64,000 bases of DNA from NCBI RefSeq assembly GCF_000247645.1, contig NZ_AHWA01000004.1:744001-808000 (forward strand), written 5' to 3'. The first letter of the stretch is position 1. Each line of letters opens with the position of its first letter. This document shows positions 1 to 8,375 of this stretch, one piece after another. Below the pieces are notes generated by a model. It was given only the letters and a program-made list of their open reading frames with translations. It did no database searches and was not told the origin of the DNA. Source of the stretch: Salinibacterium sp. PAMC 21357 (GTDB lineage: Bacteria; Actinomycetota; Actinomycetes; Actinomycetales; Microbacteriaceae). The translations under genes were made by a program, and so were the position numbers.

Positions 1-3000
1 AGGAGAGGCTCGAGCGAACACTCGAGGAGATCTTCTCTACGGTTTGTGCGTCAGACTCAGCCACGCCATCGGAGTAGCCATCCTTGCTGGCCGTGACTTG
101 CACGCTCAGCTCGGTGCCGATGTCCTCGGTCGTGATGCGGTAGCGGCTGTCAGTCGCATCAGCGATCGGCTCACCATCGCGCAGCCACTGGTAGCTGTAG
201 TCAGGTGACTTCACGCTCCAGTTGCCATGCGTTGCCTTGACCGTCTTGCCAACCTGCACGTTGCCTCGGATGCCCGGAGCCTTCGTGTTCTCGATGGCCT
301 CAGCCGTGGTGACGACCTCAATCGGTACGACAATCGCGGTGTCCGTTCCCGGAACCGTGACGGTCAACGCGAGCGTGCCCGCAGCCGTACCGGCCGGAAT
401 CGTGACGGTCACTGATGCGCGACCCTGCTCATCCGTGGTGTCGACAATGGTGCGGTCGATCGTTGCTGAACCGAGCACCGTTCCGTCAGCCGAAACCTCG
501 ACCGTGGTGGCGTCTGAGCCGCCACGGCTGAAGGTAAGCGACGACAGGTCGAGCGTGACGTCATCTCCGGGGTTGTAGCCGTCTGCATCCGGAGCCGAAA
601 CAACAGCACCAATGGCGCGCTGCTCGAGCGGCGGGTCAGCGACCGTGTTCGCTTCGAACCACTCGACCATTGACTGCAGGTCGACGCGGCCGCTGTCGGC
701 GCGGTTGGTTCCCTCAGCAAGAGTGGCGAAGTTGTCGCCACCGGCTGCGAGGAAGGAGTTAGCGACCACCTTGTAGGTGGCTGCGACATCCACGGCAACA
801 CCGTTGAGGTACATCGCGGTCACTCGCTCGCCCTGGGCTGCGGTGGGGTCGTAGGAGTACGTCAACCCTTCCGAAATGCCGAGCTTGAGGAACGGACGCT
901 GTGCACCAGCCGGCTGCCACTGCTCTTCGAGCACCGACTTGATTTGCGCACCCGTCAACGACATCGTCGTGAGCGTGTTGCCGAAGGGCTGCACGTTCGC
1001 AGCCTCGCGGTACGTGACGTTTCCGTCAGGGTCGCTCGCACTCGACGACTCGTAGACGAGGTCCGTGCGCAAACCGCCGGGGTTCATGAAGGCGATCTCT
1101 GCACCCGAATCTGATGCTGCCCAGAGCTGAACATCAGCAACAAAGTTGCCGAGGGTCGACTCTCCACCGCGGTTCTCAGGGAATGGAGTTCCGTCGACCG
1201 GAGTCTGCACTGCACGGAACATGCTGTCGGAGATCTCTCCGACCTTGGCGTTACCAAGCTCGGCTGCCGCCGCAGTAGCGGCATCAACGATGGCCTGCAC
1301 CGCGAGATCTGGCTCGAAGCCGACAATCGGTAGAACCTCGGCGCTGAAGGAGATAATCTCCTGCGTTGCCGGGTCGACCGTGAGGTCGAAGTGACCGTAG
1401 TTGGCGCCGTATTGTCCAGCTGAAACGACCAAACGAGGGCGGTCCATACCGGGCACCGTGACTTCGTGGTCGTAGGCGAGGTGAGTGTGACCCGAGACAA
1501 TCGCTTCAACCTTCGGGCTCAGGCCCGTGACGATCTGGCCAAAGGCCGAGTCGTCGGTCGATGCCGAAATATCGACGGATGCCGCACCTTCGTGAACGAG
1601 CAGAACGAGAACATCTGCTTCGCCGTTGGCGTCATTACCGTCGGTGAGGTAGTCCGCAACGCGGTCAACCTCGGTCACGATGCTGCGAATTTCCAGCGAG
1701 GCGATGCCAGCGGGGCTGACCAACTCGTTGAGGTCTTCGGTAACAGCACCGATGAAGCCGACGGTCACGCCATCGAACTCCTGCAGGAAGTACTCGTCGT
1801 AGGCTGGAGCGTTGGTGTCCCGGTCGTAGAGGTTCGCTGCAAGGTACGGCCAGTCGGCGGCATCCAGGATGCGGTCGTCAACATCGGCACGACCCTGATC
1901 GAATTCGTGGTTACCGATGAGCTCGTGTCGAGCCCGATTTCGTTGAGCACGTCGATCGTGGGCTGGTCGTTCTGGATGAACGAGGTGAAGGTAGTTGCAC
2001 CAACAAAGTCGCCAGCACCAACAAACGTGGTGTTGGGGTTCAGTGCTTCCCAGTAGTTCACCATTCCGCCGAGCTGAGCTGCGCCGGGAACTCCGCCGCC
2101 TGCTTCGATTCGACCGTGGAAGTCGTTCGTCGTGAGAATTTCGATCTCAACCGGCACCGCTTCGGTGCTGAGGCCAATGCTGATCGGGTCGTGGTCGCTC
2201 GAACGGAACACGGTGCCCGCTTCGGTTGCCCCGAAGGCATAGCCACGATCGCCCCACTCAGGCGAATTGATGTTCCAGACAGCGGCATTAGTGACGTTGT
2301 CGGCAAGCGACGGCGAAACAATGATGTGGTCGAGCGAGCCCAATTCACCATCAAACGTGTAGGTGTACTGGTCACCGGTCAGCGCTGCGAGGGTGTCAAC
2401 GTAGCCCGCCGAAGTGAAGACCTGAACCGGATCTTCTTCAGAGTAGGCATTAAAGTCACCGACGAGCACAACCTGGTCACTCTTGGCGGGATCGGCTGAG
2501 ATCGAGTCAACGAGAGCCTTGACGGCGTTGGCCTGCTCAACACGCTCGGTGTTGAAAAAACCTTGACCATCAGTTGGTTCGGTGCCGGATCCGCCCTTCG
2601 ACTTGAAGTGGTTAGCGACCACCGTAATCAGTTCGCCGTTCGACTCAAAAGTTTGAGCGATCGGCTCGCGCGCGATGTCCCACACCGTCTCATCAACCTG
2701 CGTGAAGCTATCGCCTACCGGAGTAGCTGCAGCCGGCTTGAAGATGATCGCGTTTGTGATGAAGTCGGTGATGACTGCATCGTTCAGGTCTGCTGGCGTG
2801 CGAACGTAGTCCCACGTTCCCGCACCGGCAGCCGCGTTGAGCGCACCGACGAGATCCATGAGCGCTTCGTCGAGTTCTCCGCGCAGTTTGACCGAGTTCT
2901 CGATCTCCATGAGACCAACAACATCCGCGTCGAGCGAGTTGATTGCTGCGACGATTTTCGACTGCTGGATAGCGAATTCTTCAGAGGTGTCAGCACCGCG

Positions 3001-4011
3001 AGCATCCGGATCTTCACTCGTCAGTGTTGTGAAGTAGTTGTAGACGTTGAAGGCCGAAACCTTGAAGTCTCCACCGACGACAGGAGCCGACTCTTCGCGC
3101 GGGTTCGTCGGCGCGAACGTTGGACGATACTCTGCCGGGCTCGAGTCGTTTATCGCGATCGTCGGTTGCAAACGCCAGTCATCAAAGCCGTAGCTCAGAA
3201 TGTAAGGGTTCGCCGGGAAATCAACGGTGTCGCCGTTGCGAACAACAGTGTCAGCCGAGAAATACGGCTGCTCACCCGGGTGCGACCCGTTGGAAATTTG
3301 GATGCTATAGCCATCATCGAGGAAGATGCGGCTGGCACGGTTGGCGGCGGCGATCGCATTAGCGGCGTCTCCGGCATCCGTGGTTTCGGTGCTCTTGACT
3401 GCTAGCTCACTCGGGCTGAGCCAGAGGGTGCCGAAGTTGTAGAGCTGGTGGCTCGAGCTGACGAGGTAGTCACCGGTGGGGGCGACGAGCATCGACTCGA
3501 GGGATTCGCGGTCGTTGCCGACAACGCTCGCATCGAGAGCGGATGCCTGAACCAGATCAGCCGGGTCGAGGTTCGCCGCTGCGGTGACAAGTTCAACCGT
3601 GGCTGGCGTTGCGCCTGCACCGAGCTGGGTTTGGCCGAAGCGCTCATCGACAGGACCTGTTGCCGTGACTTTGTCACCGAGAGCAACGGGTGGGTTCTCG
3701 TTGTTGAGGTAGAGGAAGATTCCATCGGAAGCGCCGGGGGTAGCGTCGTTAGCCCCACCCGATCCGGGAGTCTGGATGACAATGCCGCGGTAGCCAGAGG
3801 CCCCACGGTAGTCAGCGGTAACGACACCTTCTACGGTTACAGTCGAGCCCGCCATTGGGCTCGATGCTGTTGTGCCTTGAACTTCGGCGATGGTCGCCGT
3901 TACATCGGCTGCGAATGCGGCCGGAGCGGTAAGCGTAGCCAGCGCGATGGCACAGGAGGTGGCAATAGCCCCTACTGAGAATCGCGTCGACCTGCTGCGG
4001 TGATTATGCAT
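1..4011 (-). pseudogene. Secreted ExeM/NucH-type endonuclease fused to 5'-nucleotidase, frameshifted, 3' end off window
   Basis: The protein starts with a signal peptide (about residues 1-35, ending AFA-AD) and an OB-like nuclease-associated region. An endonuclease/exonuclease/phosphatase domain follows, with motifs MEIENS, NHFKSKGG, VGDFNAYS, LDHI and SDHDP. A 5'-nucleotidase metallophosphatase then begins (TTNDFHGR, GAGDF). The first frame is lost near position 1920, just before the expected GNHEFD motif. The neighbouring minus-strand frame continues with IGNHEFDQG, SGHTH and NPGGLR (5'-nucleotidase C-terminal domain) and an Ig-like tail containing GNW and SYQWLRDG. It stays open to base 1, so the stop lies outside. 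One missing base explains the break. The family releases phosphate and nucleosides from extracellular DNA. The call is firm; whether the break is real is not. Confidence 0.85.
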
Positions 4012-5001: not shown

Positions 5002-6219
5002 CTACTTCACAAGTTGAGCGTGAATGGCCTCAATGCCCAGCTGGACTTCAGCGTACGTGGTGCTGAGCGGCGACAGCCCGAGACGGATGCCGTTGGGCCT
5101 CCGAAAATCAGGAATGATCCCCTGCTTCCATAGCGCCGCATTCACTTCTGCGAAGCTTTCGTGGTCGATCGTGACGTGGCTGCCCCGTTCGTCAGCATTG
5201 CGCGGCGAGCTCACCGTGACACCAAGCGGAGTCAGCAGTTCGTCGACAAGCTCGAGCGCATATTCGGTCATCGCGACAGACTTGGCCCGAATTGCTGGAA
5301 TGCCCGCCTGCTCAATGAGGCCGAGCATGTCTTGCATCGCGAGCGATCCCACGATCGACGGCGTGCCACTGATGAAGCGCCGGATGCCGTGATGCGGCGC
5401 GTACCCTGGCCCCATTTCAAAGGGACTGCTGCTGCCCATCCACCCCTGTATTGGTTGGGTCATGCTCTCGATGTGTTCTGAGCGCACATACCCGAAGGCT
5501 GGAGAGCCGGGCCCGCCGTTGAGGTATTTGTAGGTGCAGCCAGCGGCGAGGTCAACGCCCCACTCGTCGAGTTGGGTGTCGACGACTCCGGCGGAGTGGC
5601 ACAGGTCCCACAGCACGAGGGCCCCGGCGTCGTGGGCGATGGCCGTGATACCGGGCATATCGGCGAGGTAGCCGGAACGGTAGGCGACGTGGCTGATCAC
5701 GACGAGGGCGGTGTTTTCGGTAAGGGCGGCTTGTACTGCGTTGGCGGTGACTCCCCCCTCGATGGGTGGGTCGATCCAGCGCAGGGTCTTGCCTAGTTCG
5801 GCGGCGATGCCTTCAACGATGTAGCGATCGGTAGGAAAGTTGCCGGTGTCGATGACGATTTCGCTGCGGTCGGGGCGGGCGGTGAGTGCGGCCCGAATGA
5901 GTTTGTAAAGGACCACCGTGGTGGAATCTCCGATAAAGGTTTGGCCGGGCGCAGCACCGAGAGTGGCGGCACCGAGACGGTCACCGAGAGTGAGAGGCAG
6001 GTCGTACCAGGACTCATCCCAACCACGGATGAGGCGCCCGCCCCACTGTTCGTCGACGAATTCGGCGAGGCGAGCCGCACTCGCGATGGTCGGACGACCG
6101 AGCGAGTTGCCATCGAGATACGCCCGCACTTCTGGCGAACGCACAAACTTGGCAGGGAAGGCAGCGAGCGAGTCGGCGCCATCGAGGGACTCTGCGGCAT
6201 TAACGCTGGTATCGGTCAT
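5002..6219 (-). CDS. kynU: Kynureninase
   Basis: PLP enzyme of aminotransferase fold class I that cleaves kynurenine (or 3-hydroxykynurenine) to anthranilate (or its 3-hydroxy form) and alanine. Family features: YLDGNSLG near the N-terminus, FPTDRYI, the LWDLCHSAGV region around the PLP aspartate, and CTYKYLNGGPGSPAF containing the PLP lysine. I choose the ATG at 6219 over an upstream ATG at 6234. It gives a 4-bp ATGA overlap with the preceding amidohydrolase gene and has a GGAGAG Shine-Dalgarno 7 nt upstream. The 405-aa length is normal. It is the third gene of the kyn operon. Confidence 0.95.
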   Translation of the reverse strand: MTDTSVNAAESLDGADSLAAFPAKFVRSPEVRAYLDGNSLGRPTIASAARLAEFVDEQWGGRLIRGWDESWYDLPLTLGDRLGAATLGAAPGQTFIGDSTTVVLYKLIRAALTARPDRSEIVIDTGNFPTDRYIVEGIAAELGKTLRWIDPPIEGGVTANAVQAALTENTALVVISHVAYRSGYLADMPGITAIAHDAGALVLWDLCHSAGVVDTQLDEWGVDLAAGCTYKYLNGGPGSPAFGYVRSEHIESMTQPIQGWMGSSSPFEMGPGYAPHHGIRRFISGTPSIVGSLAMQDMLGLIEQAGIPAIRAKSVAMTEYALELVDELLTPLGVTVSSPRNADERGSHVTIDHESFAEVNAALWKQGIIPDFRRPNGIRLGLSPLSTTYAEVQLGIEAIHAQLVK

Positions 6220-7385
6220 GAGATATCTCTCCACTGAATCGGGATCGGGGTGGTTTCAAGCGAAACGCCGACATCAGTCACCTCAGTGTTCTGGGTTACC
6301 GAGTCAGCAAATTGGGGATTCAACAGTTCGCGCGCGGTCACGACTGTTGCGCTCATCAGCCACGTGGCGAGGTCGGTATCGACTCGCGGAACTGTCGGCA
6401 GATAACTCACGGTGCTACCAAAGCTAGGCAGGCAGAGCGCCCTCAATAGCGAATCGTTTCGCACTCCCGCATCCTGAAGGGCTGACAGCTCGCGCCCATT
6501 TAGCCCGAGAGGCAGATCGCCATTACCCATATCGGTGCCGTAACGCACAGTTCCCCCGGCGCAGTGAAAGCGGCGCAGGTTATCACTGGCGATCTCAAAG
6601 TCGTGGCCGCGCTGACCATAACCATGGATGTCGAGGGTACTGATCCACGAGTGGCGTCCCGCCAAAAAACGAGAGTTTGGCTGCGCCATCTTCTCGATCA
6701 GGGAATCATCGAGCCGCTCAGTCCACGGCGTGTGCGCCAAACGATCGACGCCAGCGGCGAAGGCGCGCTGCGTTTGCCCAGCCCCCTGCACGTGGGCAAC
6801 AACTTCGCGCCCCCGACTGTGCGCGTATTCCACCAGTGCACTCAATGTTTCGTCATCAATCACTGGGCCATCATCAGCGTTCAGCGCAACTTTGATCATG
6901 CTGGCGCCGGCCTGAATTTGCTCAGCGACCGCCGCCATCGCCTGCTCGTCCGTCGACACCTCGCACACCGCAAGATTCACGGCCCACGCACGGTTCACCG
7001 GATAGCCACCGGGAGCCGCAATAAATGCTCCCGCGAAATTTAGGGCAGCAACAGCGTCATCGGCGCCCCACTCCGCCAAACGCCCCGGGTCACCGCCCAA
7101 ATCGTCAACCGCAGCAAGACCACCAGCGACAAGAGCGCGCGGCTCGATCAGCCCGAGATGCACGTGCGAGTCGCGAAAGCCCGGAAGTAGCACTCCCGGA
7201 AGACGGCGGGCGGTCAGCGCAGCGTCATCCGCAATCGCTCGAATGCCGTGGATGCTGACGCGCACGGTTGCCGGACCGTGCCATTCGCGCATCCAATAGG
7301 CATCGACCCGGTAGTCGTGAGTGGGGGCGGCCTCAGGGTTTGACGCGGCGGCGCTAGCGGCTGCTGGGGTCTCGGGTTCGCTCAC
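6216..7385 (-). CDS. Metal-dependent amidohydrolase in kyn operon, candidate formylkynurenine formamidase
   Basis: A 389-aa amidohydrolase-superfamily protein. The metal site looks complete: H74-x-H76 ([10 protein letters not shown]), K165 (ASMIKVAL), H198 (VVAHVQG), H218 (RLAHTPW) and D285 (YGTDMGN). It resembles the imidazolonepropionase/prolidase-like branch. It is joined to the tryptophan dioxygenase gene and to kynU by 4-bp ATGA overlaps on both sides, so all three are probably translationally coupled. The step between those enzymes is hydrolysis of N-formylkynurenine, and no KynB-type cyclase or alpha/beta-hydrolase formamidase is nearby. The family assignment is solid; the formamidase role is inference from context. 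Confidence 0.8.
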
Positions 7386-8239
7386 GAGCGGCCGATCTCG
7401 GTGCGCACGGCGAAGAGTTCAGGAAAGAAAGTGAGGTCGAGGGCTTTCTGGAGAAAGCCGACACCGCTGGATCCGCCGGTGCCGCGCTTCATGCCGATGA
7501 TGCGCATGACTGTTTTCATGTGCCGGAAGCGCCACAGTTGAAAGTTGTCTTCGAGATCAACGAACTCTTCGCAGGCTTCGTAGGCGAGCCAGTGTTCGCT
7601 CTCGTTGTCGTAAATGTGGCGGAAAGTCTCGATGAGCTCGTCATTTTGCTCGTAGCCGCGTGTGACATCACGGTTGAGTACCGCATCCGGAATCTTGTAA
7701 CCGTGGCGGCTGAGGTAGCGCAAGAACTCGTCATAGACGCTCGGCTCGGCCAGCAACTTACTGAGCAGGGCGTGAGCTTCGGGGTGCGATTCGAAGACTT
7801 TGAGCATGCCCGCGTTCTTGTTGCCGAGCAGAAACTCGACCGCTCGGTATTGATATGACTGGAACCCGGATGAGCTACCCAGATAGTCGCGGAACTGCGA
7901 GTACTCACTCGGGGTCAGCGTCGCGAGCACCGACCACTGTTCGGTGAGGGTGCGCTGGATGTGCTTGACGCGGGCAATGCGCTTGAGCGCAATAGAGAGG
8001 TTGTCGCTCGCCATCAAATCGCGGGCCGAGGTCAGTTCGTGAATCACGAGTTTGAGCCACAGCTCGGTGGTCTGATGCTGGATAATGAACAGCATCTCGT
8101 CGTGATGCTCAGGTGTGCTTTGCGGAGTCTGGGCGCTCAACAGGGTGTCGAGTTCTAGGTACGCGCCGTACGACATCCGCTTACTGAAGTCGGTGACGAT
8201 CTCATCTTCAATGGCACGTTCGTTGTGAGTATCCGACAT
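7382..8239 (-). CDS. kynA: Tryptophan 2,3-dioxygenase
   Basis: Heme dioxygenase that opens the indole ring of tryptophan to give N-formylkynurenine. Hallmarks are [30 protein letters not shown] (distal histidine region), [24 protein letters not shown] (proximal heme histidine) and KRGTGGSSG near the C-terminus. At 285 aa it has the usual bacterial length. It is the first gene of the operon. The start codon follows a TAGGGT -10 element by 6 nt, consistent with a leaderless transcript. Confidence 0.96.
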
Positions 8240-8245
8240 GCCGAT

Positions 8246-8263
8246 ACCCTATTGCACTATTGC
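8246..8263 (-). promoter_or_regulatory. kynA leaderless promoter with overlapping direct repeat
   Basis: On the minus strand TAGGGT (8246-8251) ends 6 nt before the kynA ATG, which fits a leaderless start. The direct repeat GCAATAG occurs at 8257-8263 and 8249-8255, 8 bp apart, the second copy overlapping the -10. This is a candidate site for the operon's PaaX-like regulator, inferred from position only. Confidence 0.45.
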
Positions 8264-8375
8264 GACGACCGCCACACTTCTGTTCGATTCGGGACGCACT
8301 GGCGTGGCTCTCGCGCACACGAGCATGCGCGAACGGCCACTTGAGCAACGCGCACCCGACCTCTATACGCGGGCT

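What the first reader, a model, noticed from the sequence alone, without database searches (positions are those of the whole stretch)
6216..8239. Amidohydrolase placed as formylkynurenine formamidase
The kynA-?-kynU operon needs a formamidase between the dioxygenase and kynureninase. The slot is filled by a metal-dependent amidohydrolase with a complete HxH-K-H-H-D site, joined by ATGA overlaps on both sides. Known formamidases are KynB (cyclase fold) and alpha/beta hydrolases; neither is here. This would be a non-homologous formamidase. The fold and context are seen; the function is inferred.
Basis: partly seen in the sequence, partly recalled or inferred. Interest (0 to 1): 0.75.

Follow-up and report, generated by a model that had tools for sequence, protein, structure and literature searches.

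The report
Unrelated stand-in enzyme for tryptophan breakdown
In this bacterium and many of its actinobacterial relatives, the second step of tryptophan breakdown appears to be done by a metal enzyme unrelated to the two known kinds that do this job, which a simple assay could test.

Summary
[quoted passage not shown] Its HxH-K-H-H-D site is invariant in 26 of 26 aligned rows. The genome (99.8% complete) has no KynB-family gene and only weak matches to a formamidase-like alpha/beta hydrolase. Of the best 80 of 438 relatives, 67 have the order TDO-AHS-KynU; 37 of 37 sampled family genomes with both AHS and TDO have them adjacent. Of 15 TDO genomes lacking AHS, 6 carry the alpha/beta hydrolase instead (4 beside TDO); none of 80 AHS loci carries it or KynB nearby. 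This replacement pattern fits a third, independently evolved kynurenine formamidase. Activity is inferred, not shown. Limits: nine TDO genomes have neither enzyme; in other families 25 of 30 TDO neighbourhoods showed none of the three; AHS is a minority solution in the class (12 of 296 genomes). My searches found no paper on this family; the nearest precedent is a 513-aa amidohydrolase (MymD/MyeD) proposed for the same step in mycemycin biosynthesis.

The parts
7382..8239 (-). kynA, tryptophan 2,3-dioxygenase (makes N-formylkynurenine)
   Evidence: TIGR03036 404 bits over cut-off 390.7; PF03301 224 bits
6216..7385 (-). AHS, amidohydrolase-superfamily protein, proposed kynurenine formamidase (389 aa; GTG start overlapping the kynA stop)
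7382..7385 (-). kynA/AHS 4-base overlap, GTGA
   Evidence: sequence; a 4-base overlap here in 29 of 70 loci with TDO
6216..6219 (-). AHS/kynU 4-base overlap, ATGA
   Evidence: sequence; a 4-base overlap here in 58 of 74 loci with KynU
5002..6219 (-). kynU, kynureninase-like PLP enzyme (ATG at 6219; ORF list starts at 6234)
   Evidence: TIGR01814 232 bits (cut-off 246), KYNU_C 90.6 bits
4177..4995 (-). PaaX-family transcriptional regulator, last gene of the operon
   Evidence: PaaX_M, PaaX_C, PaaX Pfam hits over cut-off; follows KynU in 31 of 80 related loci
8262..8274 (-). candidate operator TGGCGGTCGTCGC upstream of kynA
   Evidence: motif within 3 mismatches in 27 of 31 loci with the PaaX gene, 5 of 38 without; position read
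8246..8251 (-). candidate -10 element TAGGGT, 6 bases before the kynA ATG (would give a leaderless mRNA)
   Evidence: TANNNT 4-9 bases before the start in 22 of 31 PaaX loci and 7 of 38 others; position read

Best explanation
The amidohydrolase is the kynurenine formamidase of this operon: a third kind, not homologous to bacterial KynB or to the alpha/beta-hydrolase KFase. TDO opens the indole ring of tryptophan to N-formylkynurenine; AHS, a barrel metalloenzyme with an HxH-K-H-H-D site, activates a water on its metal centre to cleave the formamide, giving formate and kynurenine; the kynureninase-like enzyme then gives anthranilate and alanine. A PaaX-family regulator closes the operon and probably represses a promoter just before kynA. 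Shown here: gene order, conserved ligands, barrel fold (predicted model), no match to the KynB family in the genome, and replacement by an alpha/beta hydrolase in some relatives. Inferred: substrate, binuclear metal site with carboxylated lysine, mechanism, regulation.
For: Order TDO-AHS-KynU in 67 of the best 80 of 438 relatives; TDO and/or KynU adjacent in 79 of 80 (in L187 the TDO match is only a fragment at the contig end). In 150 sampled family genomes 42 have the AHS clade (E<=1e-20); 37 of these have TDO, against 15 of 108 without AHS (Fisher p 1e-17, not corrected for kinship); in 37 of 37 the two are adjacent, and 36 of 42 have KynU within 2.5 kb. Four-base overlaps: AHS/KynU 58 of 74, TDO/AHS 29 of 70. 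An alpha/beta hydrolase lies beside TDO or KynU in 10 of 60 neighbourhoods examined; all 10 have an HGG motif and 9 of 10 GHSAG. It was never seen together with AHS: 0 of 80 loci, 0 of 42 genomes at E<=1e-14; among 52 TDO genomes 0 both / 37 AHS / 6 hydrolase / 9 neither, Fisher p 2.5e-4; at the looser E<=1e-6, 4 of 37 against 7 of 15, p 0.008. G075 has TDO-AHS-KynU-PaaX; G138 of the same genus has TDO-KynU-PaaX without AHS and carries the hydrolase elsewhere. No PF04199 or TIGR03035 match in the genome. AHS stays next to KynU where TDO is absent from the locus (8 of 80; in G331 TDO lies on another contig), which places its reaction next to kynureninase. All 12 class-sample genomes with the strong AHS clade have TDO. 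Nearest folds hydrolyse amides (ochratoxinase, ADH3, Lys/Arg carboxypeptidase).
Against: No assay exists. Five of 42 AHS family genomes have no TDO; two of these (G034, G109) have AHS near an ABC transporter and away from KynU. Four more (G064, G051, G121, G041) have TDO-AHS with KynU elsewhere. One of 80 loci (L164) has AHS alone. Nine of 52 TDO genomes have neither AHS nor the hydrolase; six of these also lack PF04199, so a recognisable formamidase does not always accompany TDO (two of the six assemblies are only 78% and 84% complete). Of 30 TDO neighbourhoods fetched outside the AHS operons of other families (L195, L205-L233), 25 showed none of the three enzymes. The hydrolase cut-off of 1e-14 was set after seeing the list; 4 of 42 AHS genomes (G000, G028, G041, G075) have weaker matches (E 4.8e-9 to 8.8e-7). 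25 of 37 AHS+TDO genomes carry some PF04199 gene, none over the TIGR03035 cut-off. KynU scores under the curated kynureninase cut-off. Counts are not corrected for shared ancestry; in the class sample AHS is in 12 of 296 genomes, 11 of them of this family, against TDO in 181.
Confidence: 0.85

Rival explanations
1. AHS hydrolyses another acyl-amide of the pathway, for example N-formylanthranilate (from kynureninase acting on N-formylkynurenine) or an N-acyl-kynurenine, and the formyl group of N-formylkynurenine is lost spontaneously or by a side activity.
For: AHS is linked to KynU even without TDO in 8 of 80 loci and in G004, G035, G110; six TDO genomes seem to do without any of the three formamidase types searched.
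Against: An alpha/beta hydrolase resembling the eukaryotic KFase type takes the same neighbourhood in some relatives without AHS and was not found beside AHS.
Confidence: 0.08
2. AHS is a dipeptidase or N-acyl-amino-acid hydrolase that frees tryptophan (or kynurenine) from peptides to feed the pathway, like the Xaa-Pro and Lys/Arg carboxypeptidases that share its fold.
For: Nearest solved structures include such enzymes; the best NCBIfam profile is an Xaa-Pro dipeptidase, far below cut-off.
Against: Position between TDO and KynU, retention with KynU where TDO is absent from the locus, and replacement by KFase-like hydrolases.
Confidence: 0.04
3. The real formamidase is an unlinked esterase of the genome (for example the alpha/beta-hydrolase frame around G000:C3:27275-27664), and AHS has an accessory role.
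For: Weak match to the KFase-like hydrolase, E 5.8e-7, with an HGGAW motif, which some of the operon-linked hydrolases also have.
Against: The match covers about 120 residues at 34-38% identity and is not near kyn genes; same-genus genomes G082 and G145, which carry the same operon, have no match at E<=1e-6.
Confidence: 0.03

Closest known systems
Bacterial kynurenine formamidase KynB (PF04199, TIGR03035)
   Same: Proposed reaction; metal-dependent amide hydrolysis (binuclear Zn in KynB, PMC4243253); found beside a kynureninase gene (L234, L235)
   Different: Different fold and sequence: KynB is described as a new amidase fold (abstract of PMC4243253); AHS is an amidohydrolase-superfamily barrel with no PF04199 match; BLASTP to one KynB (G019) E 2.2
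Eukaryotic-type kynurenine formamidase (alpha/beta hydrolase, Ser-His-Asp)
   Same: Proposed reaction; HGG/GHSAG hydrolases of this general type take the AHS place in some sister operons
   Different: Serine hydrolase of another fold; best BLASTP of AHS to two such hydrolases E 0.13
Ochratoxinase / ADH3 and Lys/Arg carboxypeptidase group of the amidohydrolase superfamily
   Different: Different known substrates; the AHS family has its own conserved stretches GGYPxxxxWA, TLDIHG and YGTDLGNG
MymD/MyeD 'amidohydrolase' of mycemycin biosynthesis (PMC5867642, passages read)
   Same: An amidohydrolase in a pathway with TDO and kynureninase, proposed to deformylate N-formylkynurenine; deletion of myeD abolished product
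   Different: MymD is 513 aa against 389; secondary metabolism; MymD came out as inclusion bodies and no formylkynurenine assay of it appears in the passages read; sequence relation to AHS not tested here; the same cluster also lists an alpha/beta hydrolase

Membership tests
Amidohydrolase superfamily (PF01979 type, HxH-K-H-H-D) | Profile match over the curated cut-off | tested here: met
   PF01979 26.1 bits vs 25; a narrow pass covering residues 65-227
Amidohydrolase superfamily (PF01979 type, HxH-K-H-H-D) | HxH, Lys, His, His, Asp metal ligands at the ends of barrel strands | tested here: met
   H74, H76, K165, H198, H218, D285 invariant in 26 of 26 and 67 of 67 rows; in the model they lie in or just after strands 70-75, 163-169, 194-200, 215-216 and 279-281. 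The pattern as a family mark is recalled
Amidohydrolase superfamily (PF01979 type, HxH-K-H-H-D) | Barrel fold | tested here: met
Amidohydrolase superfamily (PF01979 type, HxH-K-H-H-D) | Bound metal ions and carboxylated lysine | not testable with these tools
   No metal or coordinates were examined
Bacterial KynB (PF04199 / TIGR03035) | Cyclase-family sequence | tested here: not met
   No PF04199 or TIGR03035 hit for the protein at E<=0.001
Alpha/beta-hydrolase kynurenine formamidase | Alpha/beta-hydrolase sequence | tested here: not met
   Only Amidohydro_1 matched; barrel model
Kynurenine formamidase as an activity (EC 3.5.1.9) | Hydrolysis of N-formyl-L-kynurenine | not testable with these tools
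   Inferred from context and replacement only
Xaa-Pro dipeptidase NF051886 | Score over curated cut-off | tested here: not met
   41.7 bits vs 500
Ochratoxinase / ADH3 / Lys-Arg carboxypeptidase group | Membership of that subgroup by sequence and substrate | tested here: inconclusive

The most novel reading that the evidence does not exclude
A third, independently evolved class of kynurenine formamidase, built on the amidohydrolase barrel, occurs in several actinobacterial families and has traded places with the alpha/beta-hydrolase type more than once; in lineages without a tryptophan dioxygenase (such as G035 and G110, and probably Frigoribacterium) the AHS-kynureninase pair forms a stand-alone module that scavenges N-formylkynurenine made outside the cell.
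Probability: 0.35. Interest if true: 0.75.

Novelty: new variant of a known kind. Interest (0 to 1): 0.62.

Why it matters
The formamidase step of tryptophan catabolism already has two unrelated solutions; a third on another fold would make it a clean case of repeated enzyme invention. It would also name a gene that the curated models used here place no further than the amidohydrolase superfamily, complete a pathway that would look broken in these genomes to tools keyed on KynB or the alpha/beta type, and offer a metal-dependent amide hydrolase for kynurenine and anthranilate production. It can be tested with one purified protein and a spectrophotometer.

Tried and rejected
Rejected or uninformative: a KynB-family gene or a strong alpha/beta formamidase elsewhere in the genome; an indoleamine dioxygenase replacing TDO in AHS-KynU genomes (PF01231, 0 of 11 genomes, but none of the 14 controls rang, so this says little); a fusion of AHS with TDO or KynU as extra proof (none in 79 loci); a TDO substitute beside AHS-KynU in Actinopolyspora, Nocardia and Microbacterium (of seven neighbours scanned there, one DUF389, one Na/H exchanger, five without a family). 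Plasmid collection: one record matched (Embleya, 43.8%), no annotated gene beneath it, so no public product name was learned. Co-inheritance by Mantel test cannot tell shared function from shared ancestry. Literature searches; no listing named a paper on this family as a formamidase; the MymD/MyeD proposal is the nearest. Papers seen in part: PMC5867642 (passages), PMC4243253 (abstract, introduction, mechanism section), PMC5341072 (passages); all others only as search listings. Recalled, not read: an Arthrobacter amidohydrolase-superfamily enzyme (N-substituted formamide deformylase) that cleaves formamides (one search did not list its paper); HGGxW as a KFase mark; PaaX proteins as repressors.

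Limits: the 80 named loci are the best 80 of 438 by similarity to my query, so they lean to close relatives. L145 and L147 come from one assembly; L147 was dropped but both count. One search read 69 of the 71 loci with TDO. L122 ends just after AHS, so its lack of KynU says nothing. The tree used 72 rows: 26 of A1, 24 tier rows and every third of 66 complete loci; some rows repeat, and its 'kynlinked' label includes three A1 rows (L016, L022, L095) without TDO beside them. The family and class samples are drawn from larger groups.
Full report
What is there. On the minus strand, kynA (8239-7382), the amidohydrolase AHS (7385-6216), kynU (6219-5002) and a PaaX-family regulator (4995-4177) run head to tail. 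kynA scores 404 bits to TIGR03036 (cut-off 390.7). kynU scores 232 bits to TIGR01814 (cut-off 246.4) and 90.6 to KYNU_C (cut-off 27): kynureninase-like, a little outside the curated model. AHS matches only Pfam Amidohydro_1, narrowly (26.1 vs 25).

The genome. The window lies in a 3.1 Mb genome, 99.8% complete. Salinibacterium records are nearest by AHS, and G082, listed as of the window's genus, has a contig of the same length as Salinibacterium sp. SWN167, so the genus is probably Salinibacterium. PF04199 (KynB and cyclases) has no match in it, while 8 of 14 control genomes ring. TIGR03035 has none. The alpha/beta hydrolase of a sister operon (L097:7556-8311) hits weakly three times (E 5.8e-7, 2.2e-6, 5.6e-5), the best in a 351-aa esterase-like frame far from the operon, with an HGGAW motif.

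Linkage. A scan of genome contigs found 438 relatives; the best 80 were kept. Of these 31 have TDO-AHS-KynU-PaaX, 36 TDO-AHS-KynU, 4 TDO-AHS (L122 ends just after AHS; in L187 only a piece of TDO is in view), 8 AHS-KynU and 1 AHS alone. Genera with TDO-AHS-KynU include Salinibacterium, Cryobacterium, Leifsonia, Agromyces, Herbiconiux, Oerskovia, Isoptericola, Cellulosimicrobium, Rhodococcus and Saccharopolyspora. Over 79 of them (one duplicate dropped) a 4-base overlap joins AHS to KynU in 58 of 74 and TDO to AHS in 29 of 70; no fusions. AHS distances follow those of TDO and KynU (Mantel r 0.75 and 0.83 over 66 loci), as shared ancestry alone could give. In 150 genomes sampled from the family, 42 have the AHS clade (E<=1e-20) and 52 have TDO; 37 have both, always adjacent, and 36 of the 42 have KynU within 2.5 kb. 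In a class sample of 296 genomes TDO is in 181 and the strong AHS clade (E<1e-90) in 12, all 12 with TDO and 11 of them of this family: AHS is a minority solution.

Replacement. Fifteen TDO genomes of the family lack AHS. Four have an alpha/beta hydrolase directly beside TDO or KynU: G026, G093, G066, G116. Two more carry it elsewhere: G138 and G009. G138 shares its genus with G075, which has TDO-AHS-KynU-PaaX; G138 has TDO-KynU-PaaX with no AHS. The remaining nine have neither; three of these have some PF04199 gene (G084, G131, G095), six have none of the three types, all of them assemblies of 1.1-1.6 Mb, two of them only 78% and 84% complete. Across 52 TDO genomes: both 0, AHS only 37, hydrolase only 6, neither 9 (Fisher p 2.5e-4; across all 150, 0/42/17/91, p 0.003). 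The cut-off here, E<=1e-14, was chosen after seeing the list; at E<=1e-6 the hydrolase is in 4 of 37 AHS+TDO genomes (the window's among them) and 7 of 15 without AHS, p 0.008. None of this is corrected for kinship.

Outside the family. Of 30 TDO neighbourhoods fetched from other families or away from AHS (L195, L205-L233), five have the hydrolase: four of one family and genus (f25, g112: L214-L217, TDO-KynU-hydrolase) and L209 (beside KynU, on the other strand); 25 showed none of the three enzymes. A further AB-KynU pair is L236, and in L234 and L235 a KynB sits beside another KynU clade. All ten hydrolases beside kyn genes have an HGG motif and nine of ten GHSAG. None of the 80 AHS loci holds the hydrolase or KynB. 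In 12 of 37 AHS+TDO family genomes, the window's included, there is no PF04199 gene and no hydrolase at E<=1e-14; the other 25 have some PF04199 gene, none over the TIGR03035 cut-off.

Reading. Between the product of TDO (N-formylkynurenine) and the substrate of kynureninase (kynurenine) there is one reaction, and one gene of fitting chemistry lies there, exchanged in some relatives for a serine hydrolase of the general type that eukaryotes use (PMC4243253, introduction). AHS stays with KynU where TDO is missing from the locus (8 of 80; also G331, where TDO lies on another contig), which ties it to the step before kynureninase rather than to tryptophan supply. I put 0.85 on AHS being the kynurenine formamidase. 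Not shown: the activity, the metals, the mechanism. KynB itself uses two zinc ions (PMC4243253), so if AHS is a formamidase the chemistry was reached twice with metals and once with serine.

Against. AHS without TDO in the genome (5 of 42), away from kyn genes (G034 and G109 near an ABC transporter; L164 alone) or with KynU elsewhere (G064, G051, G121, G041) shows either scavenging of the substrate, looser organisation or a second use. TDO genomes with no formamidase found show that the step can be met otherwise, perhaps spontaneously. A sister clade of AHS ('second tier', nine genomes of three other families) keeps the metal ligands and GGYPS but has a loop one residue shorter, HAL in place of the H-x-(E/Q)-G stretch and no TLDIHG; all nine genomes have TDO, not linked (chance about 0.012 from 181 of 296, kinship not corrected); the tree separates it with 100/100 support (rooted at the midpoint). 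Its role is open.

Print. In ten searches of the held library I saw no paper describing this family as a formamidase. PMC5867642 (passages) proposes a 513-aa amidohydrolase (MymD/MyeD) for deformylation of N-formylkynurenine in mycemycin biosynthesis from predicted function and a deletion that abolishes product; whether it is related to AHS was not tested. Most subscription papers are outside the library, so absence there is weak evidence of novelty.

Regulation. The bases before kynA carry TGGCGGTCGTCGC (8274-8262) and TAGGGT (8251-8246), the latter six bases before the ATG. The first motif is present within three mismatches in 27 of 31 loci that have the PaaX-like gene and 5 of 38 that do not (Fisher p 3e-10; shuffled sequences 5%; kinship not corrected, and the motif was chosen from some of the same loci). 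The likely reading is a PaaX-family repressor acting on a leaderless kyn promoter; inferred.

Noticed in passing
8246-8274 (minus): Candidate operator TGGCGGTCGTCGC plus a -10-like TAGGGT six bases before the kynA ATG, found with the PaaX-like gene across genera; suggests a leaderless, PaaX-regulated kyn promoter.
   Followed up: partly
L140, L153, L157, L165, L167, L170, L182, L190; L091, L092, L093: AHS-KynU pairs without TDO in the locus (Frigoribacterium, Actinopolyspora, Nocardia, Microbacterium); G004, G035 and G110 have no TDO in the genome by PF03301; L091 and L092 have a methyltransferase gene beside the pair.
   Followed up: partly
L196-L204: A sister clade of AHS in nine genomes of three other families, metal ligands kept but other stretches changed, not beside kyn genes in the stretches held although all nine genomes have TDO.
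   Followed up: partly
G010, G013, G067, G081, G104, G144: Small genomes with TDO and KynU but none of the three formamidase types found; perhaps spontaneous hydrolysis, a fourth enzyme, or (G081, G144) incomplete assemblies.
   Followed up: no
L205-L208, L210-L213, L218-L233: TDO neighbourhoods of other actinobacterial families in which none of AHS, KynB or the alpha/beta hydrolase was detected; their formamidase is unknown to me.
   Followed up: no
L234, L235: KynB lies beside a KynU clade that scores over the TIGR01814 cut-off, distinct from the KynU of the AHS operons.
   Followed up: no
L106, L099: KynU matches in two pieces in different frames in G106 and G009; broken genes or sequencing errors. 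Described only.
   Followed up: no
L145, L147: The Lacisediminihabitans changchengi assembly shows two AHS loci with the same match figures on two contigs.
   Followed up: no
1084-4011 (minus): The 748-aa nuclease-like frame ends in a Thr/Ser-rich tail and further minus-strand frames lie below it; possibly an interrupted gene. Described only.
   Followed up: no
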